Positions 954-11,177 are shown, counted from the first letter of the stretch. The stretch is 64,000 bases of DNA from Bdellovibrio bacteriovorus str. Tiberius (GCF_000317895.1 NC_019567.1:1612001-1676000); one strand, 5' to 3'. Notes: generated from the letters alone by a model not told the origin. Translations and numbers: made by a program.

Positions 954-2720
954 TTACAATGTGCGATCGATTAGGGGGTTGTTCTTGTCACCAGCGGTGA
1001 GCAGATCCGAAATAGTGTTGATCAGTTCAGAAGTTTGCACCGGCTTTGCGATGTGCACATGGAATCCGGCAGCCAGGGCGCGTTCATGTTCTTCGGGTCG
1101 TGCATGGGCGGTCAGTGCCACGGCCCACAGGTTTTCGGTGTTGGGTAAAGTGCGAATCATTTTAAGCAAACTGTAGCCGTCAATATCCGGCATGCTGATG
1201 TCGCTGAGTAGAATCTGGGGATTGAACACCTGATAGAGATCAAACGCCTTTTGGGCCGAGTCGGCGGTGACGACATTGGCGCCTGATTTTTTCAAAACCA
1301 CGCTTAATAAATTTCGGGTGTCGGCGTCGTCATCAACAATCATGATGCGGACTTCATCCAGAGTTTTTGGATGTTCAGGGTTGGTCTCGACAAAGTTTTC
1401 GTAACCAAAGTGACTGGTTGTGAAACCCTCGTGCAGTTGTGCTGCAAGCACGGGTAAAGACACTGTGAATTTGGCCCCTTGATTAGGACCGGCACTTGTC
1501 GCAGCCACCGTGCCGCCATGGCCTTCGACGATATGACGAACGATCGCCAGCCCCAGCCCCAGGCCGCCATAGCGGCGCGTGGTGGTGGCGTCTTCCTGGC
1601 GGAAGCGTTCAAACACATAGGGAAGAAAATCCGGATCAATCCCTTTGCCGTTGTCAATCACATCAATCTGTACGCGTGATTCCACATTGGAAAGTTTGAC
1701 CGTGATGTTGCCCCCTTTCGGGGTGAATTTGATGGCGTTGGAAAGCAGATTCCATAAAACTTGCTGCAATCTTTCAGGATCTCCACCGACGGCTTTGACG
1801 CGTTCAGTTCCCTCGACGCGGACTTTGATATTTTTGGATTTGGCGGCGATCTGCACACTTTCATAGGCAGCCTCCACCACAGACTCGACATCAATGGGTT
1901 TCACATGCAGCTGCAGTTTGCCGGAAATGATGCGAGAAACATCCAGCAGATCGCTGATGATCTGCACTTGAATCTGGGCGTTGCGGTGAATGGCGTTGAT
2001 AGAGGCTTGCGCTTCTTCAGTGGAAGTGGCGGGATCTTTCAGAATATCACTGTGTCCCAGAATCACATTTAAAGGGGTGCGCAGTTCATGTGAAACCGTG
2101 GCCAGGAATTCGTCTTTGAGCCGATTGGCCGTTTGGGCCTGTTCGTACAGGCGCTGGCGGATGTTGGCGTCCTCTTTCAGTTGTTTGTTTGCCAGGGCCA
2201 GCTCTTGAGTGCGTTCTTGCACTCTTTGTTCCATTTCCTGATATAAGTTGCGGACCTTGGATTCAGTAGCTTTACGTTCCGAGATATCATGCAGGAAAGA
2301 ACCAAACAGGTGTTTTCCTTTATGCTCGAACGGGAAGATGGTCATTTCAACTGGAATCTCGTGGCCTTCACGGTGAAGGGCGGTGATTTCCATGCGTTTG
2401 TTCAGAACGGGGCCTTCGCCTGTGTTCAGATAGTGCGCCAGTCCTTTTTTGTGAGCTTCACGGTATTTGTGGGGGATGACGATTTCAGAAAGCTCTTTTC
2501 CCAGCACCTCGGTGCGCTTCCATCCGAAGGTTCTTTCCGCCTGAAGATTCCAGTCAGTGATCAAACCTTCGCTGTTCATTCCGATAAAGGCATTGTAAGT
2601 CGAATCCAGAATCGTGCGCGTGCGTTGTTCACTGATTTCAAATCGATCCAGCAAAGTCTTTTCGGACTCTGAAAGAAAGTACCGCGCGCCTTTATTCCGA
2701 AACCATTCAAAAAGCGTCAT
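954..2720 (-). CDS. PAS-domain hybrid sensor histidine kinase with C-terminal receiver
   Basis: This 588-residue protein has no membrane segment, so it is probably cytoplasmic. Domains in order: a PAS domain at about 33-145, a coiled-coil linker at about 150-200, HisKA with the phospho-accepting His in SHELRTPLN (H211), HATPase with N-box NLLSNAIKF, DNGKGI and GLGLGLA at about 310-425, and a receiver domain at about 457-580. The receiver has DDD at 463-465, phospho-acceptor D507 and conserved K559. The kinase can therefore pass phosphate to its own receiver and probably on to a phosphotransfer protein, but none is encoded nearby. The signal is unknown. It is transcribed alone, with 118 bp to the next gene downstream. 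Confidence 0.93.
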   Translation of the reverse strand: MTLFEWFRNKGARYFLSESEKTLLDRFEISEQRTRTILDSTYNAFIGMNSEGLITDWNLQAERTFGWKRTEVLGKELSEIVIPHKYREAHKKGLAHYLNTGEGPVLNKRMEITALHREGHEIPVEMTIFPFEHKGKHLFGSFLHDISERKATESKVRNLYQEMEQRVQERTQELALANKQLKEDANIRQRLYEQAQTANRLKDEFLATVSHELRTPLNVILGHSDILKDPATSTEEAQASINAIHRNAQIQVQIISDLLDVSRIISGKLQLHVKPIDVESVVEAAYESVQIAAKSKNIKVRVEGTERVKAVGGDPERLQQVLWNLLSNAIKFTPKGGNITVKLSNVESRVQIDVIDNGKGIDPDFLPYVFERFRQEDATTTRRYGGLGLGLAIVRHIVEGHGGTVAATSAGPNQGAKFTVSLPVLAAQLHEGFTTSHFGYENFVETNPEHPKTLDEVRIMIVDDDADTRNLLSVVLKKSGANVVTADSAQKAFDLYQVFNPQILLSDISMPDIDGYSLLKMIRTLPNTENLWAVALTAHARPEEHERALAAGFHVHIAKPVQTSELINTISDLLTAGDKNNPLIDRTL

Positions 2721-2835
2721 GCGCTTTCAGAATAACTTGATTCGGTTAATCCCACGTTAGTTTGATCAAAAATTGACCAAATATGAATGACTTCACTGTG
2801 GCTTTACATGGTTTTGCCATCAGTCTGTGTTATTT

Positions 2836-3363
2836 CTAAGGAACAAACAGCTTTTCACAGCGGTTGGACCAGGGACGATAGCCACGCCATTTTAGTTCAC
2901 GATAAATGTCGTCAGGGGATATGCCCAGTTCTGTCGGGGCAGTTGAATTCCGATTTTTCCAGATGCTGCCAGAAAATCGCATGGGTGTCGGCGGCAGATT
3001 CAGAATCTGTGCTAACAACTTTGAACAATATGTTTTATCTTTGGCTGCCCAGGAATAGGATGTGTCGTATTTTTGATGGAGATATTGTTTGATGTCTTTT
3101 TCGGTCAAGTCGGGTGCTGCTTCTTGGGTGACTATCAAGGCAGGATCGCCAATGTCACTGAGTAAGTTCACCAGTTGTACACCCCAATAGGGATGTGCAT
3201 GCAGCCACTTGTCTCCGACGGAAATGGCGACATGTAGATAGCGTCCGCCTTTTTCCATCGTGACCAGATTTCCCTGAGCATCGCGGGCTTCGAAGAAAGC
3301 GATCTTCGGGGCACTCAAGGCGGTGGCGCCCCAGAACAGGCCGGTTGTCAGCACCTTAATCAC
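2836..3363 (-). CDS. YiiX/YebB-like permuted papain-fold cysteine hydrolase, exported
   Basis: The 175-residue protein has a short hydrophobic N-terminus (KVLTTGLFWGATALSA) that may be a signal peptide. It then has the arrangement seen in permuted NlpC/P60-like (YiiX) proteins: a His in LHVAISV (H44), further His residues in LHAHP, and a later Cys in TYCSKLL (C113). Members with this fold act on amide or ester bonds in cell wall or lipid substrates. The assignment comes from the motif order only. The gene overlaps the 3' end of bioY by 8 nt, so the two are probably cotranscribed, but a link to biotin is not evident. Possible substrates are peptidoglycan peptides or acylated molecules. Confidence 0.55.
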   Translation of the reverse strand: MIKVLTTGLFWGATALSAPKIAFFEARDAQGNLVTMEKGGRYLHVAISVGDKWLHAHPYWGVQLVNLLSDIGDPALIVTQEAAPDLTEKDIKQYLHQKYDTSYSWAAKDKTYCSKLLAQILNLPPTPMRFSGSIWKNRNSTAPTELGISPDDIYRELKWRGYRPWSNRCEKLFVP

Positions 3364-3934
3364 TTGTACCTCGGCGGGACAAGGCAGAGGCCGTTGCCGC
3401 CGCCAGGGTGTTCTTCAAAAGGTCTCCGGGTAGAAAAGGCAATACGCCAAGTGCCAGGAGCTGGTTGAAGGGAACGAAGAATGACAGACCGAGTGCTCCG
3501 ACAGTAAAAACCAGGAGCGATCCCAGATACGCCGAGGCTAGCGCGCCTTTAAATGTCTTTGTGTAGCCCCGGTCCGCCATGCCACCCACGAACCACGTGG
3601 CCAGAAGCATTCCCAGTAGATACCCAACGGTAGGGCCCATGGTTAAGAAAGCCTTACCTTGGGCAAATACGGGAAGTCCCGCGGCACCTTCAACTAGGTA
3701 AAGAGCCATGCTGGCCGTCGCAAGCTTTCGTCCCCACAGCAGTGACAGCAGTGCAACTCCAAAAGTCTGACCAGTGATCGGCACCGGGGTGAATGGGAGA
3801 TGGATATTTATTTGTGCTATGAGCGCCAGCAGGACAGATCCTGCCACGGTCGAGGTGATTGCTGCGGTTGTTGGGTTTGTAAAGAGCTTTGATGATATCT
3901 GCGGCAACAGGGCCATGCTGTGAAGTTTGGTCAT
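3356..3934 (-). CDS. bioY: BioY family biotin transporter (substrate-binding S component)
   Basis: This 192-residue, very hydrophobic protein has about six membrane segments and the BioY signature PFTPVPITGQTF near residue 47, followed by LATASMALYLVEGAAGLPVF. BioY binds biotin in the inner membrane, either alone or with the energy-coupling proteins BioM and BioN. No bioM, bioN or biotin synthesis gene is present here, so it is solitary or uses shared ECF modules. It is divergent from a MarR-type regulator, with a perfect palindrome between them. An AGGAGA sits about 18 nt before the ATG, rather far, so the exact start is uncertain. Confidence 0.88.
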   Translation of the reverse strand: MTKLHSMALLPQISSKLFTNPTTAAITSTVAGSVLLALIAQINIHLPFTPVPITGQTFGVALLSLLWGRKLATASMALYLVEGAAGLPVFAQGKAFLTMGPTVGYLLGMLLATWFVGGMADRGYTKTFKGALASAYLGSLLVFTVGALGLSFFVPFNQLLALGVLPFLPGDLLKNTLAAATASALSRRGTSD

Positions 3935-3990
3935 GAAACAAAGATGCCACTTTCTCCTGGTGAAAAGAACAGCAAATAAGGTTTCAAGGC

Positions 3991-4027
3991 TATTGTTTCA
4001 TATTGAATAGTTTAATATGAAACAATA
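3991..4027. promoter_or_regulatory. Perfect 14-bp inverted repeat with embedded divergent promoters, bioY/MarR
   Basis: The arms 3991-4004 (TATTGTTTCATATT) and 4014-4027 are exact reverse complements separated by 9 bp. On the plus strand TTGTTT (3993) and TATGAA (4016) are 17 bp apart. By symmetry the same pair with the same spacing exists on the minus strand. The palindrome can therefore supply the -35 and -10 boxes of both divergent genes. A MarR dimer bound here would block both promoters. Binding by the adjacent regulator is inferred. Confidence 0.7.
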
Positions 4028-4037
4028 TATTCGATCC

Positions 4038-4472
4038 ATGAAGATAGAAAAGTTCCTGAATCAGAACCCGAGCTTTCAGATTGTTGTTGCTGGCAATGCC
4101 ATTTTTCAGAAGGTCAGCGAGGGCCTTGCCGGCCATGAGCTTGGAATGATGGACGCCCTGATTCTGGTGGCGATTTTCTTTGAAAACGACAAGGCTGCGC
4201 GCCCAACCCAGCTGAAGGAAGCCTTTGGCATTCCCAAAGCAAATGTCAGCCATAGCATTCGTGCGCTTGAAAAAAAGAAATTGCTGAAAAGGTCCATCCA
4301 CGATTCAGATGCCAGAGGATATGTGCTGGATTTAACCCCGAAGGGGGCACGGACTGCGGTGGAAGTGATTTCTTACTTTGATAAACTGCAAGGGCGGATC
4401 GAAAGAAAGTGCGATGCGAAATCACTGGATTCATTCCATAGAACCCTGGCAGCGCTTGCATCAGTACATTAG
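4038..4472 (+). CDS. MarR-family transcriptional regulator, candidate regulator of bioY
   Basis: The protein has 144 residues from the ATG at 4038. An in-frame ATG at 4017 would add seven residues, but it lies inside the right arm of the palindrome, so 4038 is preferred. No clear ribosome site marks either start. The winged-helix core is visible: RPTQLKEAFGIPKANVSHSI is the HTH, followed by RALEKKKLLKR and a wing, DSDARGYVLDLTPKG, as in MarR proteins. It is probably a dimeric repressor acting on the palindrome between itself and bioY. Biotin or a related molecule as ligand is a guess from position. It ends 13 bp from the end of a convergent gene. Confidence 0.8.
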   Translation: MKIEKFLNQNPSFQIVVAGNAIFQKVSEGLAGHELGMMDALILVAIFFENDKAARPTQLKEAFGIPKANVSHSIRALEKKKLLKRSIHDSDARGYVLDLTPKGARTAVEVISYFDKLQGRIERKCDAKSLDSFHRTLAALASVH

Positions 4473-4485
4473 GGAATTATGGAGA

Positions 4486-5754
4486 TTATTCATCCTTGCC
4501 AAAGTTAAAACCTGACCCAGGTTCCAAAGAGAATATGTTCGAGAATATCCAGATTCTCCCCGCTGCAAAACCATTGTTCACTTCAAACTTTACTGAGGCT
4601 GGCTGTCCTGTCTTAGAATAGGAGATCAGAATTTCCTGGGGAACCAAGGCCGACATGCCATATTCATCTTCGGGTTGTGGGGCCCAATAGGAATACCGGA
4701 CTGAAGATTCGTTGGTAACGATGTTCCTGGTTTTAAATCCCAGGCCGCTTTCCGAGACAGGAAGCTGAAAAATGAACGAAGCCTCACCGTTTCGGATCAC
4801 AACTGACTTTTTGTCGGCGCTTAAATGAAGTGAGCATTTCTGTTCCTTCTCGGATTTGTTTTCCAGATCTTTGTTGACGCAGGTTTCTTTGATATTCTTG
4901 TCTTCGATCCAGAAGATAAGATCTTTCAAATCTTTGGCGCCATTGTCTTCCGCCATGTCCATTCGCAGCGCGGAACCCATGATTCTTTCGTCAAAGCCAA
5001 GACCGATCAGATGTACGAAAATCTCGTCCGAGGTTTTCTTTGACGATGCATCCATTAGAAGGTGAGTCGCTTCTCGGATGACGGGATAGTCGGTGGCAGT
5101 CAGGACCGAGTACAAAGATTTGGGTTTGACGGTGAACGACTCGCGACACAGATCACGGTCAAAGTAGTGATCTTTTATGCGTGAGCAGAAGACTGTTTTA
5201 AAAGCCACGAATTCTTCCGGATTTTTATCCGCAATTTTACGCACTTTGGATAACACGTACAAGTCCATGATGGTCTCATGGAAAATCAGATAGGCTTGGG
5301 TTTCAGGGGACAGGGTGTTGAAGGCGGAAGAGTCGATCCAGACTTCACCTTGAGTTTGAAAGGCATACTGTTCATAGTCCTTGGCTCGGAATTCCATCCC
5401 CATTTTTTCGGCGTCGATGCGATTTAATTTCTGGGGCACAAAAATCCAGGTTTTCTTTTGCAGTACATTCAGCAGAGCCGGATTGAGTGATGTGGTTCTT
5501 TCCAGAACCTTGCTGATTTCTGTTTTCCAGATGTCCAGGGTTTCAAGTTTGGTGATGTACTGTTCGTACATTTTGGAGTTAAATCCGGTGCCGCCTCCGC
5601 CATCGCCGGTGTTTCCGCCGCCGCCACTGGTTTCAGTAGGGCCGGTGCTGGTGTGATCACTGGGTTGACAGGCGACGATAAACGTCATGAAGCCGCACAG
5701 AAGCCAGGACATAAGGCGCAAATAGAATTTGTTTCGTGATGCTTGCACGGTCAT
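4486..5754 (-). CDS. Lipoprotein of unknown function with degenerate metalloprotease-like motif
   Basis: The start is the ATG at 5754, with a GGAG ribosome site about 7 nt upstream, giving 422 residues. Further upstream in-frame ATGs lack such a site. The N-terminus is a lipoprotein signal ending FIVAC, followed by a Ser/Thr/Gly-rich spacer with GGGGNTGDGGGG, so the mature protein is probably lipid-anchored in the envelope. A stretch AYLIFHETIMDL resembles an HExxH helix but lacks the second His, so catalytic activity is doubtful. No family is recognised. It is divergent from the TIGR02147 regulator, and an operator-like repeat lies in the shared upstream region about 120 bp away, so it could be under the same control. 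Confidence 0.75.
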   Translation of the reverse strand: MTVQASRNKFYLRLMSWLLCGFMTFIVACQPSDHTSTGPTETSGGGGNTGDGGGGTGFNSKMYEQYITKLETLDIWKTEISKVLERTTSLNPALLNVLQKKTWIFVPQKLNRIDAEKMGMEFRAKDYEQYAFQTQGEVWIDSSAFNTLSPETQAYLIFHETIMDLYVLSKVRKIADKNPEEFVAFKTVFCSRIKDHYFDRDLCRESFTVKPKSLYSVLTATDYPVIREATHLLMDASSKKTSDEIFVHLIGLGFDERIMGSALRMDMAEDNGAKDLKDLIFWIEDKNIKETCVNKDLENKSEKEQKCSLHLSADKKSVVIRNGEASFIFQLPVSESGLGFKTRNIVTNESSVRYSYWAPQPEDEYGMSALVPQEILISYSKTGQPASVKFEVNNGFAAGRIWIFSNIFSLEPGSGFNFGKDE

Positions 5755-5876
5755 ATTCGACTCCTGCCGGATTGAGGAGCAATCACCGTGCCTCACCAAA
5801 GGTCCCGAAATCTCAAGATGAGACAGGAGCAAGGTCTTGATTTTTGGCTGAAAAGCCGAAAAACAGGTCGGGCTCT

Positions 5877-5893
5877 GTTTACCGTTAGTAAAC
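5877..5893. promoter_or_regulatory. Operator-like inverted repeat upstream of TIGR02147 regulator
   Basis: GTTTAC and GTAAAC arms are separated by 5 bp (CGTTA), followed by TGG, and end 7 bp before the regulator ATG. A second copy with the same arms and spacing occurs at 6709-6723. The common form is TTTACCnnnnGTAAACTG. It lies between the regulator and the divergent lipoprotein gene. Autoregulation is inferred. Confidence 0.65.
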
Positions 5894-5900
5894 TGGCAGC

Positions 5901-6707
5901 ATGCTGGATATTTATAACTACGACGACTACAGGCTTTTCTTTAAAGATGTTCTGCAATCACAGGAGCGCACGGACAAGAAGTACCGCGGAAGACTTGTTG
6001 AAGCCATGCGAATCAGCACCTCGCTGTTTTCGCAGATCCTGAAAGGTGAAAAGAATCTTTCTTCCGAACAGGGGTTGGAAGCTGCGGCGTTCTTTGGTTT
6101 TGGCGACAAAGAAACGGATGTTTTTATGCTGATGATCGAGCTGGGACGGGCAGGCTCGGTCAAGCTTCAGTCGCGTATCAAAGGCAAGATCCAGGTGCTG
6201 CAGGCAGAAGCCAAATCCATCAGTGCCCGGGTTCCCAAAGATGTGGTTCTGAGTGATGTGGACAAGGCCACGTACTATTCTTCGTGGTTATATACCGGAG
6301 TCCGTAATCTGCTGCCGACCCCGGTGGGAAAAGAATTGAAAACCATCGCTGAAAAGCTGGGCGTGCCTTTGGAAAAGGTGGACACGGCCATTCAGTTTTT
6401 GATCGAAGTGGGCCTGTGTGAAAGAAAGAACGGGCAGCTTTTTTATAAGCAGGGTTTTACGCACCTGGATTCCACCCATCCGATGATTCTAAGGCACCAC
6501 CAGAACTGGCGACAGCGAGCCATTTCCAAGATGGATTTTTACAAAGACCCCCATGTTCACTATACAAGCCCCATGTCCTTGTCCGCCGAGGGGGCCCAGA
6601 AGATCCGGGACTATCTGCGTGCAAACATCAAGGAAATCATCAACTTATCGCGCGAGGGAAGTCCTGAAGTCGGCTATTGCCTTAATATAGACTGGTACGA
6701 ATACTGA
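5901..6707 (+). CDS. TIGR02147 family transcriptional regulator
   Basis: The 268-residue protein matches the TIGR02147 (DUF4423) family, known mainly from Fibrobacter and Bdellovibrio. It opens with IYNYDDYRLFFKDVL, then an HTH-like segment RISTSLFSQILKGEKNLSSEQ at about 41-60, and the typical central and C-terminal helical regions ending near residue 268. These proteins are probable DNA-binding regulators whose targets and ligands are largely unknown. It is followed 112 bp downstream by three exported protein genes on the same strand, and the same inverted repeat precedes both it and them. It is therefore probably their regulator. The ATG has no obvious ribosome site. Confidence 0.88.
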   Translation: MLDIYNYDDYRLFFKDVLQSQERTDKKYRGRLVEAMRISTSLFSQILKGEKNLSSEQGLEAAAFFGFGDKETDVFMLMIELGRAGSVKLQSRIKGKIQVLQAEAKSISARVPKDVVLSDVDKATYYSSWLYTGVRNLLPTPVGKELKTIAEKLGVPLEKVDTAIQFLIEVGLCERKNGQLFYKQGFTHLDSTHPMILRHHQNWRQRAISKMDFYKDPHVHYTSPMSLSAEGAQKIRDYLRANIKEIINLSREGSPEVGYCLNIDWYEY

Positions 6708-6708
6708 C

Positions 6709-6723
6709 TTTACCAAAAGTAAA
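6709..6723. promoter_or_regulatory. Second copy of the operator-like repeat, upstream of the Gly-rich cluster
   Basis: TTTAC, a 5-bp spacer (CAAAA) and GTAAA, followed by CTG, copy the element at 5877-5893. It begins directly after the regulator stop codon and lies about 97 bp before the first glycine-rich gene, a suitable place for an operator of that cluster. Confidence 0.65.
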
Positions 6724-6787
6724 CTGAAACCCATCCGTTTTAACCAACCGGACTTCGCGGATTTTTTCTGAATTCTGTAAAAAGCTT

Positions 6788-6811
6788 CTCATGCGAAATG
6801 AATCGTATGAG
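6788..6811 (+). promoter_or_regulatory. Hairpin overlapping the ribosome site of the first Gly-rich gene
   Basis: CTCATGCGA (6788-6796) pairs with TCGTATGAG (6803-6811) with one G-U pair and a 6-nt loop. It ends within the GAGGAG ribosome site just before the ATG at 6820. It could influence translation or be a second protein site. Confidence 0.4.
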
Positions 6812-6819
6812 GAGTTTTT

Positions 6820-8097
6820 ATGAAGTTTTCCAAATTGATCTTCGGGTTGTTGGTTCTGACTCAGGTGCAAGCCTACTCAGCGCCCTTGTGTCTGAATGAC
6901 CGGTACCAATCGAAGTGGACAGCCGAAACCTTGGCTGAACAACTGCCGTTCCTTCAAGAGCGTGCCAAGGCTGCAAAGCCTCTGTGGGCCGGTCTTCAGG
7001 GCGAGGATCTTCTGATTAAGGAAGACACACTTTTGGTGCTGCCTGAAAACCCGTCTCAGTACCTGGCGGAAATCGGCAAACTGACGGTTCGAAATAACGC
7101 CCTGATTTTCTATGCTCAAAATGCGCGTCTTGTTGTGGCCGAGGTGATGAAATCCTCGCGCGTGCAAATGCTGGATGTGGCGGCGCTGAATCTTTCAGCG
7201 GAAATAGATCACGCAAACCGGATTGTTTCCCTCACAGAACTAAAAAACAATCCTGATCAAGTGGAGCCATTTAAAAGATGCACTTTGATGACTTGTGCCG
7301 GTGTTTCTGCCGCCAATGGCAGTCATGGTGGCGCCGGGGGCAATGGCCGGGATGCCGGTGGAAAAATAAAATGGGGAATTCCAAAATCCACGCCCAGCTC
7401 TGATGGTGGCGCAGGGGCATCCGGCGGAGCCGGGGCGAATGGTCGCAACGGTGACAACGGGGCTCCCGGGGTTGCGGGACTGAATGCCCATAAACTTTTC
7501 ATGCAATTTGAAAGTGTGGACCTGTGCAGTGGGGTGGAAATTGTTGCCAGTGGTGGTGTGGGATTAAAGGGACTGAAAGGTCTGAATGCTCAGGACGCCG
7601 GACAAGGTGGCAATGGTGGTAAAGGCGGCCGTGGCGGCGGAGCAAAGTGGGATCGCAAAGCCAGTCGTGGTGGTCACGGTGGCGCGGGCGGTGCCGGAGG
7701 CAACGGTGGTAACGGGGGCTTTGGTGGAGATGGAGGCAAAGGCGGTGACGGCGGTCTGGTGGTTGTCGTGGTGAAGCCGCGCTTTATGGACATGGTGAAA
7801 GTAAACGACAACATCAATGTGCTGGTTGCTGGTGGTAAGGGCGGACCGGGCGGAGCCAAAGGCCTTGCAGGCAAAGGTGGCCGTGGTGGCCTTGCCGGTG
7901 ACGGCGGTGATGGTGGAGACGGTTCGGTCTTCAGTCACGGTGGCAGCTCGGGCCTTGTTGGCAGTGCGGGAATGCAAGGTCAGGATGGCAAAGATGGTCA
8001 AGAGGGCCGTCCCGGTGTTGAAGGCCGCGAGGGGCTTGTTACCAAGGCAGAGATTTATATTTCAAACGATGTCTCGATTGAGAGCTTTCAATTTTAA
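6820..8097 (+). CDS. Exported glycine-rich/collagen-like protein 1
   Basis: The 425-residue protein has a signal peptide (MKFSKLIFGLLVLTQVQAYSA) and a non-repetitive N-terminal domain to about residue 155. A long GGx/GGxGGx-rich region follows at about 160-385. Near the C-terminus is a run of collagen-type G-X-Y triplets (GMQGQDGKDGQEGRPG) and a short tail ending SIESFQF. GGx repeats of this kind can pack as polyglycine-II helix bundles, as in some phage adhesins. That structure is inferred here. It is the first gene of a three-gene cluster, 8 bp before a second Gly-rich gene, with a strong GAGGAG ribosome site. A surface or prey-contact role is possible but not shown. Confidence 0.8.
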   Translation: MKFSKLIFGLLVLTQVQAYSAPLCLNDRYQSKWTAETLAEQLPFLQERAKAAKPLWAGLQGEDLLIKEDTLLVLPENPSQYLAEIGKLTVRNNALIFYAQNARLVVAEVMKSSRVQMLDVAALNLSAEIDHANRIVSLTELKNNPDQVEPFKRCTLMTCAGVSAANGSHGGAGGNGRDAGGKIKWGIPKSTPSSDGGAGASGGAGANGRNGDNGAPGVAGLNAHKLFMQFESVDLCSGVEIVASGGVGLKGLKGLNAQDAGQGGNGGKGGRGGGAKWDRKASRGGHGGAGGAGGNGGNGGFGGDGGKGGDGGLVVVVVKPRFMDMVKVNDNINVLVAGGKGGPGGAKGLAGKGGRGGLAGDGGDGGDGSVFSHGGSSGLVGSAGMQGQDGKDGQEGRPGVEGREGLVTKAEIYISNDVSIESFQF

Positions 8098-8111
8098 CAG
8101 GGAAAATGACT

Positions 8112-9329
8112 ATGAAAAATGTTTTTAAAAATTTGATACCTTTGGCGGCGGTAGTGACTTTTGCGGATCCTGCATGGGCCCGGATTCTGGGGGACCCTTC
8201 CGAAAGAACCCGCGTGCTGCTGGAAGAGCAAAAATTTCTTTGCGGTCAGGATGAAACGCTCGTGATCAACGGTGACGTGGAATTCACTCGCAAGAATGAG
8301 GACCTGCGCCAGGCGCCTTTGAATGTTGATTTGATCTGCAAGCGAATTGAATTCAGAAACGGCGGAAGAATTCTGACTCAATCCAATTTGCAGATTGTTG
8401 CCGATTCGATCGACGGCTTTATGAATGTGGAAAGCATTCGCGGAGCAAAAGGGCAGCAGGGGGAATTTGCCCCGGCCGTGCTGGTGCTTGCCAATGATGG
8501 TTCTGCCGGTGCCCGAGGGGGCAATGGCAGTGGCGGCAGCCTGACGGATTCTCCAGAAGACGGAGGCCGAGGTCAGCATGGTTACAACGGGATGGATGGC
8601 CGTGATGGTAACAATGGTGCTCCGGGTGATTCGGGTGTTCATGCTTCTGATATCGTTTTGAAAATCAACCGGATCGAAGGAACCATTGGCTTTCGCATCC
8701 GCGCTGTTGGGGGTGAAGGCGGAACTGGCGGTAAAGGCGGCCGAGGCCAACAAGGTGGTAACGGTGGCGTCGGTGGCGATGGCGGTCGCGGTGGGAATCA
8801 GAAATACGCTATTTGGAATCGCTCGGGCGATGGCGGTGACGGTGGTGATGGGGGACACGGCGGCAATGGTGGCAATGGTGGCGCGGGTGGTGACGGGGGC
8901 CGAGGAGGCAACGGCGGTAAGATCGCTTTGTATGTGGCTGAAATCTTCAACACGCTGGAACTGACCGGAGATGAGTTCGACAACCGCGGAGGCCCCGGAG
9001 GTCAGCCAGGCATGGGTGGCGAAGGTGGTGTCGGTGGCAAAGGGGGCGATGGCGGTAAGGGCGGCGCTTCAGGTACGGCGTTGGTGACCTCAAGTTGTCA
9101 GATTCCCCCTTGTGAAGGTGATAACGGTCGCCATGGCAAGAGAGGTCTTGATGGCAAGCCGGGACTGGCAGGTCCACAAGGGCGCCTGGGGCAGGACGGT
9201 TTGGCTGGCGTCAAAATTCTGGATCCGAAATTCAAATTTGTGAAATCGGTTCCTGAGGACTATTTCGACAAGCTGCCAGAGCTGGGAACAGAAAAGAACC
9301 TGAAAATCCTCAGAATGAAACTTCCGTAA
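8112..9329 (+). CDS. Exported glycine-rich/collagen-like protein 2
   Basis: The start at 8112 is chosen over the ATG at 8106 because AGGGA lies 8 nt before it and only 2 nt before the other, giving 405 residues. A signal peptide (MKNVFKNLIPLAAVVTFADPAWA) precedes a domain of about 100 residues that resembles a beta-strand-rich fold. Two GGx-rich blocks (about 135-275 and 295-330) follow, then collagen-like triplets (GKRGLDGKPGLAGPQG) and a charged C-terminal tail of about 40 residues. The overall plan matches its upstream neighbour but the sequences differ, so they look like old paralogues. It is cotranscribed with the MACPF-like gene 17 bp downstream. Confidence 0.8.
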   Translation: MKNVFKNLIPLAAVVTFADPAWARILGDPSERTRVLLEEQKFLCGQDETLVINGDVEFTRKNEDLRQAPLNVDLICKRIEFRNGGRILTQSNLQIVADSIDGFMNVESIRGAKGQQGEFAPAVLVLANDGSAGARGGNGSGGSLTDSPEDGGRGQHGYNGMDGRDGNNGAPGDSGVHASDIVLKINRIEGTIGFRIRAVGGEGGTGGKGGRGQQGGNGGVGGDGGRGGNQKYAIWNRSGDGGDGGDGGHGGNGGNGGAGGDGGRGGNGGKIALYVAEIFNTLELTGDEFDNRGGPGGQPGMGGEGGVGGKGGDGGKGGASGTALVTSSCQIPPCEGDNGRHGKRGLDGKPGLAGPQGRLGQDGLAGVKILDPKFKFVKSVPEDYFDKLPELGTEKNLKILRMKLP

Positions 9330-9346
9330 AGGACAGGACAAAATTT

Positions 9347-10921
9347 ATGAAAAAAATTATTTTTGTGGTGTTGTTGGTATCGATGCAGTCGTTCGCGCAG
9401 ACAATCAGTTACAGTGAAAATGGTTCTTTGAGGCTGGGCGCCGGGGTGGATATGGATCACCCCGACAGAGCCAAAGCAAACTGTGTTAAAAGCACGGATC
9501 GTGAATGGCTGGATGGCAATACGCCGGTTTCTACCTCGTTTGATCTTAGTATGATTGAGACTTCCAGTGAGCTGGAAAGAAAAATGAATTTTGATGTTCA
9601 GCTGAATGCGGCGGGCACAATCAAGGCCGTGAATTTTGACAGTCAGAATTCCTACCGGGTGATTCATAAGTTTCTGGAAAGCAAGAACAGTCTGAATTTT
9701 GCGCTGACGGCGGAATTTTCCTATGGTCGCAAAGGCCTGACAGAAGAATCCCTGAAGCCCGAGTATCAGACTTTGCTGGATAACGGCAAATGGCAGGAAG
9801 TCTTAAGAAGATGCGGAACGCACTTTGTTTCTGAAGAGATTCACCGATCCAAGGTGGTGGTGCTGATTCACGTGAAGAACTCCCGCACTGAAGACATTAA
9901 AGAACAGATTCTGGATCTGAAGAACAAACTGAAAGTTCCCAAACTGAATTTCGGCGGGGATCTGAATGTTCAGTACAAAGAATTCATCCGCAAGCTGGAC
10001 AAGATTGGTTCGGTTGAAGTGAAGGTGGTTTCGGTCGGCGGGCAAGGGGCGGATGCGCTGGGTGTTTTTGCCAGTGAAATCGCGGTGGATGATCTGCAAA
10101 GCATTAAAAATGCCGCAGAGAAATACTTCCGAAGCTTTACCATCGAGAATTCCCCGGTGTTTGCCTATGTGGTAAAGCCCCTGGATATTTTCGAGGGGGC
10201 AGAAAACATTCGTCCAAGACAGAAAAAATGGCAGCAGTTGAAAGTGCTGGCTGACTGGATTTTTGAGCACGAAGAACTGCTGACCGAAGTCAAAGGCATG
10301 CAAGCCCGGGTCAGCAGAGCGCTTTACACGGTGTACTTTGAACCCAAGGCCGCAGCTCTTGAAACCAGGATCAGCGAGATCCGCTCGCGAGCAGAAGAGT
10401 GTCTGGACCGCTACAACTGCGACAACCTTCCTGCGGTCGCACCATTTTCGATTTACGTGCCATCACGCGCTGTCAGTGCGGTTTCATTGAGTACGCAGTG
10501 TGGGTATCTGCCAGTCAGAAATTCGAACATGCAGATTTTAAGTGATGTCCGCGTGGGACTTGATGTGGATGTGATGTATGCCAAGGATATTGAAAATATC
10601 GAATTGTTCCGTCTGGATCAGAACGGCGAATTTCAGAATGCCAACTATGGACAGAATGAAGAGCTGACGATGGCGAACAATATTCTGGAATCCGAAGTGG
10701 GACGCATCAGAAGATATCAGTCGGTGAACGAGTTTTCCGCCAACCACGTGCTCTCAGATCGCGCCATCCTGTCAGCGCAAGACAGTGTGGTAAAGGCCCA
10801 GGAAATCTTCAACGCCGCCTTCAACTCAATTTACATCATGAAGATCCGATTTAAAGAAGGACAGGATCTAACCCAGATTCTGGGCACCCCTCCGATGAAG
10901 AATTGTTCTGTTTCAAGGTAA
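9347..10921 (+). CDS. Exported MACPF-domain-like protein (candidate pore former)
   Basis: The 524-residue protein has a signal peptide (MKKIIFVVLLVSMQSFA). The region at about 100-280 resembles the membrane-attack-complex/perforin fold. CGTHFVSEE at 156-164 matches the family signature [YWF]-G-T-H-[FY]. A later VVSVGGQG matches the conserved GG turn, and NSPVFAYVVKPL matches the strand that normally closes the domain. Proteins of this family insert into target membranes as oligomeric rings or act as attachment proteins. A C-terminal region of about 240 residues has no recognised family. It is the last gene of the cluster with two Gly-rich proteins. The assignment rests on motifs and needs structural confirmation. 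Confidence 0.6.
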   Translation: MKKIIFVVLLVSMQSFAQTISYSENGSLRLGAGVDMDHPDRAKANCVKSTDREWLDGNTPVSTSFDLSMIETSSELERKMNFDVQLNAAGTIKAVNFDSQNSYRVIHKFLESKNSLNFALTAEFSYGRKGLTEESLKPEYQTLLDNGKWQEVLRRCGTHFVSEEIHRSKVVVLIHVKNSRTEDIKEQILDLKNKLKVPKLNFGGDLNVQYKEFIRKLDKIGSVEVKVVSVGGQGADALGVFASEIAVDDLQSIKNAAEKYFRSFTIENSPVFAYVVKPLDIFEGAENIRPRQKKWQQLKVLADWIFEHEELLTEVKGMQARVSRALYTVYFEPKAAALETRISEIRSRAEECLDRYNCDNLPAVAPFSIYVPSRAVSAVSLSTQCGYLPVRNSNMQILSDVRVGLDVDVMYAKDIENIELFRLDQNGEFQNANYGQNEELTMANNILESEVGRIRRYQSVNEFSANHVLSDRAILSAQDSVVKAQEIFNAAFNSIYIMKIRFKEGQDLTQILGTPPMKNCSVSR

Positions 10922-10984: not shown

Positions 10985-11098
10985 CCAATCTTTCCCCTTT
11001 AAATTCAAGTTCCACAGCGAAGCAAAACGCCAGTGCGAAGCCAGAATCAAAAAGCAAGAGCGAGGATGTGTCCGAAGAATTTAAAGGGGAAAGATTGG
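10985..11098. repeat. Perfect 22-bp inverted repeat next to tRNA-Leu
   Basis: The arms 10985-11006 and 11077-11098 are exact reverse complements with a 70-bp spacer. The right arm includes the last bases of the tRNA, namely the CC of its encoded CCA. On the minus strand it could form a long stem just after the tRNA. It does not look like a simple terminator because of the long loop. Confidence 0.7.
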
Positions 11099-11177
11099 TG
11101 CGGGTGGAGGGACTTGAACCCCCATGCTTTCGCGGAAGATTTTGAATCTTCTGTGTCTACCATTTCACCACACCCGC
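11096..11177 (-). tRNA. tRNA-Leu (anticodon CAA)
   Basis: On the minus strand the acceptor arms GCGGGTG and CACCCGC pair. The anticodon stem GAAGA/TCTTC encloses a TTCAAAA loop with anticodon CAA, which reads UUG. A long variable arm (CCGCGAAAGCATGG) and GGTTCAAGTCC T-loop fit a class II leucine tRNA. The 3' CCA is encoded. Confidence 0.95.

What the first reader, a model, noticed from the sequence alone, without database searches (positions are those of the whole stretch)
5877..10921. TIGR02147 regulator with paired operators and a secreted glycine-rich/MACPF-like gene cluster
The motif TTTACCnnnnGTAAACTG occurs before the regulator and again before the three-gene cluster, and I saw no other copy in the window. 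The cluster joins two GGx/collagen-like exported proteins with a MACPF-like protein. TIGR02147 targets are poorly known. The combination suggests a regulated contact or pore-forming system of a predator.
Basis: partly seen in the sequence, partly recalled or inferred. Interest (0 to 1): 0.85.

Follow-up and report, generated by a model that had tools for sequence, protein, structure and literature searches.

The report
Operator-controlled exported glycine-rich/MACPF-like gene block
A predatory bacterium carries a five-gene block in which one little-studied regulator appears to bind the same 15-base switch in front of its own gene and in front of three exported proteins (two glycine-rich, one related to pore-forming proteins), giving this large uncharacterised regulator family a concrete binding site and target to test.

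Summary
The motif is real. TTTACCNNNNGTAAACTG occurs exactly twice in the whole 3.99-Mb genome (0.03 expected), before the TIGR02147 regulator and before GGx1-GGx2-MACPF. The core inverted repeat TTTACYNNNRGTAAA is also found only there. The repeat lies before 21 of 32 regulators of the same TIGR02147 subfamily across the order (3 of 271 control genes), usually 23-27 bases before the ATG, overlapping a TAAANT -10-like box. It is absent before the genome's other TIGR02147 paralogues. An autoregulated local operator is well supported by sequence; binding is untested.

The unit is larger than reported. A divergent lipoprotein gene (4486-5754) is the subfamily's usual partner. The 6.4-kb block lipoprotein-regulator-GGx1-GGx2-MACPF is homologous end to end in two relatives with unrelated flanks. 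GGx1-GGx2-MACPF recurs in three distant genomes of the phylum, two with a DUF4423 regulator and one with an unclassified HTH gene beside it. The MACPF link is remote: below Pfam's cut-off directly, but bridged by a relative above it. A strong hairpin (z -8.2) covers GGx1's ribosome-binding site.

Pore formation and a role in predation remain inference. Both structure models failed.

The parts
4486..5754 (-). Divergent exported lipoprotein (about 422 aa, lipobox-like FIVAC, GDGGGG stretch, HE motif); usual partner of this regulator subfamily
   Evidence: A homologue lies beside most subfamily regulators, divergent in nearly all; invariant GG, QxA, HE and R in a 15-sequence alignment; no Pfam match
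5878..5892 (.). Operator 1: TTTAC-CGTTA-GTAAA (shared 18-mer 5878-5895), positions -23 to -9 before the regulator ATG
5889..5894 (+). TAAACT, -10-like hexamer inside operator 1; would put the transcript start at about the ATG (leaderless)
   Evidence: T after the right arm conserved in 17 of 21 sites; Shine-Dalgarno-like sequence in 1 of 15 such genes against 104 of 254 controls
5901..6707 (+). TIGR02147 / DUF4423 regulator, 268 aa
6709..6723 (.). Operator 2: TTTAC-CAAAA-GTAAA (shared 18-mer 6709-6726), starts 2 bases after the regulator stop codon
   Evidence: identical in four genomes although synonymous sites of the neighbouring genes are near saturation (dS about 0.9-1.07)
6735..6759 (+). 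Second conserved leader segment CCGTTTTAACCAACCGGACTTCGCG, role unknown
   Evidence: Identical in four genomes
6780..6819 (+). 17-bp RNA hairpin whose 3' arm contains the GAGGAG ribosome-binding site of GGx1, ending directly before the ATG
   Evidence: -21.8 kcal/mol, z -8.2; 98.5% of pair cells kept in four genomes, three one-sided consistent changes, no two-sided compensation; no Rfam family
6820..8097 (+). GGx1: exported glycine-rich protein, 425 aa
   Evidence: 91 Gly, seven Gly-x-y runs; 33-35% identical homologues in three distant clusters
8106..9329 (+). GGx2: exported glycine-rich protein, 407 aa
   Evidence: 99 Gly, six Gly-x-y runs; 35-36% identical homologues in three distant clusters
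9347..10921 (+). Exported MACPF-like protein, 524 aa, with CGTHF at residues 156-160 (C156, G157 and G231 invariant in the family)

Best explanation
This is a self-contained regulated block. The TIGR02147 regulator binds, presumably as a dimer, the 15-base inverted repeat TTTACYNNNRGTAAA. At its own gene the repeat covers the -10 region of a probably leaderless promoter; a second copy lies at the start of the GGx1-GGx2-MACPF operon. Because the operator overlaps -10-like boxes, the most likely action is repression of both promoters, relieved when the C-terminal DUF4423 domain senses an unknown signal. The operon is further restrained by an RNA hairpin over the GGx1 ribosome-binding site. When released, three proteins are exported: two glycine-rich Gly-Gly-x proteins that probably form a rigid surface or scaffold element, and a MACPF-like protein that probably oligomerises on or inserts into a membrane, of prey or of competitors. 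Shown by sequence: the sites, their confinement to this locus, their link to the regulator subfamily, and conservation of the block. Inferred: binding, sign of regulation, leaderless start, hairpin function, scaffold and pore roles.
For: Two sites only in the genome. Repeat with at most one mismatch before 21 of 32 subfamily regulators against 3 of 271 control genes, and 0 of 19 other TIGR02147 genes. In an exhaustive scan of all 1,024 five-base half-sites with gaps 0-10, TTTAC/gap 5 ranks first with 15 of 32; the next has 7 and is nested in it. Position clusters at -23 to -27. Arms identical in four genomes despite dS about 1. A distant cluster (L172) has a related palindrome TGTTTCC-N5-GGAAACA between its divergent DUF4423 regulator and GGx1. 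Cluster recurrence with 33-36% GGx identity. Five-gene block homologous end to end with unrelated flanks. Purifying selection, dN/dS 0.02-0.06. MACPF relation through L189.
Against: No binding, expression or phenotype data. 11 of 32 subfamily regulators lack the repeat, and four carry it at -114 to -120. Genomes in the count are related, so the Fisher p value (1.9e-21) overstates independence. P0001 is under Pfam's MACPF cut-off, and most relatives do not match Pfam at all. AlphaFold models failed. No consensus sigma-70 promoter found at either site. Hairpin covariation has no two-sided changes.
Confidence: 0.6

Rival explanations
1. The regulator is an activator of the cluster (and of itself or the divergent lipoprotein), binding upstream of or within weak promoters rather than blocking them.
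For: No good -35 hexamers at either site. In four relatives the repeat is at -114 to -120. Many relatives also carry further GTAAA half-sites about 30 bases upstream, as activators often do.
Against: At most sites the right arm merges with a conserved TAAANT box immediately upstream of the start codon, a typical repressor position.
Confidence: 0.25
2. TTTACYNNNRGTAAA is bound by a different transcription factor, or is only a promoter feature of these genes; the TIGR02147 protein has other targets.
For: No binding experiment exists. The divergent lipoprotein promoter shares the same intergenic region, so another factor acting there could explain the conservation.
Against: The repeat follows this subfamily of regulator across genera, including four loci where the full-length lipoprotein neighbour is missing and only the regulator is shared (L080-L083), and it has no other place in this genome.
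Confidence: 0.1
3. The three exported proteins build a protective or structural layer of the predator itself; the MACPF-like protein is not a pore former.
For: GGx runs suggest packed glycine-rich helices rather than enzymes. Many MACPF proteins do not lyse; the BSAP authors tested several Bacteroides MACPF proteins and found no antimicrobial activity in most (PMC4999547). The regulator's usual partner is a lipoprotein, not a toxin.
Against: Nothing direct; the CGTHF signature and the C-terminal extension are compatible with either role.
Confidence: 0.35
4. The system is a weapon against competitors, BSAP-like, and unrelated to prey invasion.
For: Patchy distribution (4 of 24 genomes of the genus, 3 elsewhere in the phylum) and changing genomic position fit competition genes better than a core predation function.
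Against: No immunity gene is recognised in the block, although the lipoprotein could be one.
Confidence: 0.3

Closest known systems
TIGR02147 / DUF4423 (PF14394) regulators
   Same: The regulator passes both curated cut-offs. About 17 such genes are in this genome.
   Different: I found no published operator or target: no paper in the library mentions TIGR02147 and one mentions DUF4423, only as an annotation of the exit-phase-upregulated protein Bd3700.
Bacteroidales secreted antimicrobial proteins (BSAP-1, BSAP-2)
   Same: Exported MACPF proteins of a Gram-negative bacterium; BSAP-2 is encoded in a three-gene operon (PMC4999547).
   Different: No GGx partners are described there and regulation differs. 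P0001 is below the MACPF cut-off that BSAPs were collected with, and killing is untested here.
Mpf2Ba1 (PDB 8b6v) and Aeg-L (PDB 9uj0)
   Same: Best profile matches among solved structures: Aeg-L E 1.2e-5, Mpf2Ba1 E 0.025, both across the MACPF-like region.
   Different: Very low similarity and no fold comparison was possible. I did not establish what Aeg-L is beyond its deposited name.
Collagen-like and polyglycine-II (Gly-Gly-x) proteins
   Same: Long Gly-x-y and Gly-Gly-x runs; the GGx1 profile matches collagens (E 5e-5) and a deposited 'spindlefibril' chain (8e-13), a composition-driven match.
   Different: Below the Pfam collagen cut-off (23.5 of 27.2 bits); interrupted by conserved hydrophobic segments. 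A polyglycine-II fold is a lead from memory, not tested.

Membership tests
TIGR02147 regulator family | NCBIfam TIGR02147 score at or above 50 bits | tested here: met
   70 bits, positions 1-264 of 272
TIGR02147 regulator family | C-terminal DUF4423 domain (Pfam cut-off 30 bits) | tested here: met
   64.7 bits, residues 116-266
TIGR02147 regulator family | DNA binding at a defined operator | not testable with these tools
   Comparative footprint only
MACPF (PF01823) | Pfam gathering score 21.5 bits | tested here: not met
   14.7 bits whole protein, 16.2 for the N-terminal 300 residues
MACPF (PF01823) | Demonstrable homology to a protein above the cut-off | tested here: met
   L189 protein: 25 bits to PF01823 and 74.8 bits to the P0001-family profile A1
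MACPF (PF01823) | Signature around G-[TS]-H-[FY] | tested here: met
   CGTHF at 156-160; C156 and G157 invariant in 24 relatives, the TH(F/Y) part not
MACPF (PF01823) | MACPF/CDC fold | tested here: inconclusive
   AlphaFold mean pLDDT 35.5 from a two-sequence alignment
BSAP-type antibacterial pore former | Kills or permeabilises target cells | not testable with these tools
   needs experiment
Collagen (PF01391) | Pfam gathering score 27.2 bits | tested here: not met
   GGx2 23.5 bits; GGx1 no match
Polyglycine-II sandwich proteins | Packed polyglycine-II helices | tested here: inconclusive
   GGx1 model mean pLDDT 28.5
Anti-phage defence systems | Match to a PADLOC model | tested here: not met
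   Only a weak partial CasR match for the regulator, E 0.0057

The most novel reading that the evidence does not exclude
A previously undescribed, repeatedly conserved export system of predatory bacteria, in which two glycine-rich proteins form a sheath or tether for a MACPF-like pore protein, held off by two layers: a TIGR02147 operator at the promoters and a hairpin over the ribosome-binding site that responds to a cue of prey contact. The block moves between chromosomal sites together with its own regulator.
Probability: 0.25. Interest if true: 0.85.

Novelty: new variant of a known kind. Interest (0 to 1): 0.64.

Why it matters
Bdellovibrio genomes carry many TIGR02147 regulators (about 17 genes here), and none has a known DNA site. 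This locus gives an operator, its subfamily, and two promoters to test with one purified protein. It also defines a compact, testable unit: exported glycine-rich proteins plus a remote MACPF relative, conserved in predatory lineages and uncharacterised in the literature searched. If the MACPF-like protein acts on prey or competitor membranes, it adds a new component to a predator's known arsenal of proteases, nucleases and adhesins.

Tried and rejected
Structure prediction: structure prediction accepts only the window's own proteins and loci from named tools, so I aligned only the window and L033 and left out the many relatives taken with the genome search/get_from_genomes. Both models were unusable (mean pLDDT 35.5 and 28.5), so no fold search was run. 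Two further exact 18-mer hits in the order (G027, G048): one overlaps the 3' end of an unrelated ORF, the other lies inside a coding frame upstream of a distant TIGR02147 gene; chance is not excluded and I did not count them. A third palindrome in G004 lies between unrelated metabolic genes; treated as chance. Operator RNA folds: neither site is unusually stable as RNA (z 0.41 and -0.69), so an RNA role for the operator itself is rejected. Simple sigma-70 scan: nothing at either site. Anti-phage defence: no convincing match. Literature mapping to locus tags: searches for Bd1511-Bd1521, Bd1524 and Bd1535-Bd1540 gave no link to these genes, so expression through the predation cycle could not be read off.

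Full report
WHAT IS THERE. The window is part of a 3,988,594-bp single-contig Bdellovibrio genome; the closest named record is B. bacteriovorus strain kdesi. The motif TTTACCNNNNGTAAACTG is at 5878-5895 and 6709-6726 without mismatch and nowhere else in the genome (0.028 expected). Its symmetric core, TTTACYNNNRGTAAA, is also confined to these two places (0.88 expected by composition). Both sites precede a gene: the TIGR02147/DUF4423 regulator (5901-6707) and GGx1 (6820-8097), the first of three genes that begin with signal-peptide-like sequences (GGx2 8106-9329, MACPF-like 9347-10921).

THE OPERATOR BELONGS TO A REGULATOR SUBFAMILY. I collected regulators related to this one (31-49% identity) from many genera of the order and read their upstream DNA. 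The repeat, with at most one mismatch, lies within 150 bases upstream of 21 of 32 of them, against 3 of 271 genes not close to a regulator; Fisher p 1.9e-21, which overstates independence because genomes are related. None of 19 other TIGR02147 genes, mostly the paralogues of this genome, has it. Without choosing the motif beforehand, a scan of all 1,024 five-base half-sites with gaps of 0-10 puts TTTAC with gap 5 first, in 15 of 32 sequences; the next best has 7 and is nested in it. Fifteen of the 21 lie at -23 to -27 before the ATG. A T two bases after the right arm is kept in 17 of 21 sites, where symmetry would not require it, giving a -10-like TAAANT. This places the transcript start at about the ATG; only 1 of 15 such genes has a Shine-Dalgarno-like sequence, against 104 of 254 controls. 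I infer a leaderless, autoregulated promoter. In a distant relative (L172) the divergent DUF4423 regulator and GGx1 share an intergenic palindrome TGTTTCC-N5-GGAAACA, one arm base away from the TGTTTAC-N5-GTAAAC(T/A) of this window. Between this genome and its relatives, synonymous sites are near saturation (dS 0.9-1.07) with dN/dS 0.02-0.06, yet operator 2 is identical in four genomes.

THE UNIT HAS FIVE GENES. A homologue lies beside most subfamily regulators, divergent in nearly all, so this pair, not the cluster, is the widespread arrangement. The DNA of the window matches two relatives (G010, G022) only from about 4,500 to 10,914, that is lipoprotein to MACPF, with unrelated flanks on both sides. 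The block therefore sits in different chromosomal places as a unit. GGx1-GGx2-MACPF recurs in three genomes of another family of the phylum (L171, L172, L173), with 33-36% identity of the GGx proteins; their MACPF-like proteins are also the three best matches to P0001 outside Bdellovibrio. Two of the three have a DUF4423 gene next to the cluster; the third has an unclassified helix-turn-helix protein.

THE MACPF-LIKE PROTEIN. P0001 itself is below the Pfam cut-off (14.7 of 21.5 bits). A profile of 18 relatives matches PDB chains Aeg-L (E 1.2e-5) and the bacterial Mpf2Ba1 (E 0.025). A protein in G328 (L189) passes the Pfam MACPF cut-off (25 bits) and scores 74.8 bits to the P0001-family profile, a transitive link. 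CGTHF at residues 156-160 resembles the MACPF signature. I call it MACPF-like and do not file it as a member on Pfam's terms. AlphaFold models from two-sequence alignments failed.

A SECOND LAYER OF CONTROL. The GGx1 ribosome-binding site GAGGAG is inside a 17-bp hairpin that ends directly before the ATG (6780-6819; -21.8 kcal/mol, z -8.2). In four genomes 98.5% of pair cells are kept, with three one-sided consistent changes, one break and no two-sided change. It is not in Rfam. Leaders of L171 and L173 also have very stable hairpins (z -5.9 and -4.4), placed before rather than over the ribosome-binding site; L172 does not.

INTERPRETATION. Most likely the regulator represses its own gene and the operon by occupying -10-like boxes, and an unknown signal releases it; activation is the main alternative. 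The exported products are probably a glycine-rich surface or scaffold element and a membrane-active MACPF-like protein. Steps shown by sequence: sites, confinement, subfamily link, block conservation, remote MACPF homology. Steps inferred: binding, sign, leaderless start, hairpin function, pore or scaffold roles, and any part in predation.

Noticed in passing
L084-L096, L056, L070 upstream of the regulators: Many subfamily regulators carry a second element, about AGTAAANNGTWAC, some 30 bases upstream of the operator, built from the same GTAAA half-sites; it is missing in the four B. bacteriovorus-type loci.
   Followed up: partly
L067, L064, L094, L095 upstream of the regulators: Subfamily members lacking the TTTAC-N5-GTAAA repeat share a variant around TAACC-N4-GGTTA at a similar distance from the start codon, perhaps a diverged operator.
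   Followed up: no
L099, L100, L102, L103, L106, L107, L109: Other TIGR02147 paralogues of this genome are directly followed by genes of the same exported HE-motif family as the divergent lipoprotein, suggesting a general regulator/exported-protein pairing.
   Followed up: partly
L038, L039, L175, L179: MACPF-like relatives without GGx genes sit in another recurrent operon with a small exported protein and a lipoprotein.
   Followed up: no
window 11096-11177: A tRNA-Leu (CAA) gene lies just beyond the block here and in G004 but not near the block in G010 or G022.
   Followed up: partly
window 2720-4486: Compared with G004, the left flank holds an extra segment with BioY and a MarR-type regulator.
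   Followed up: no
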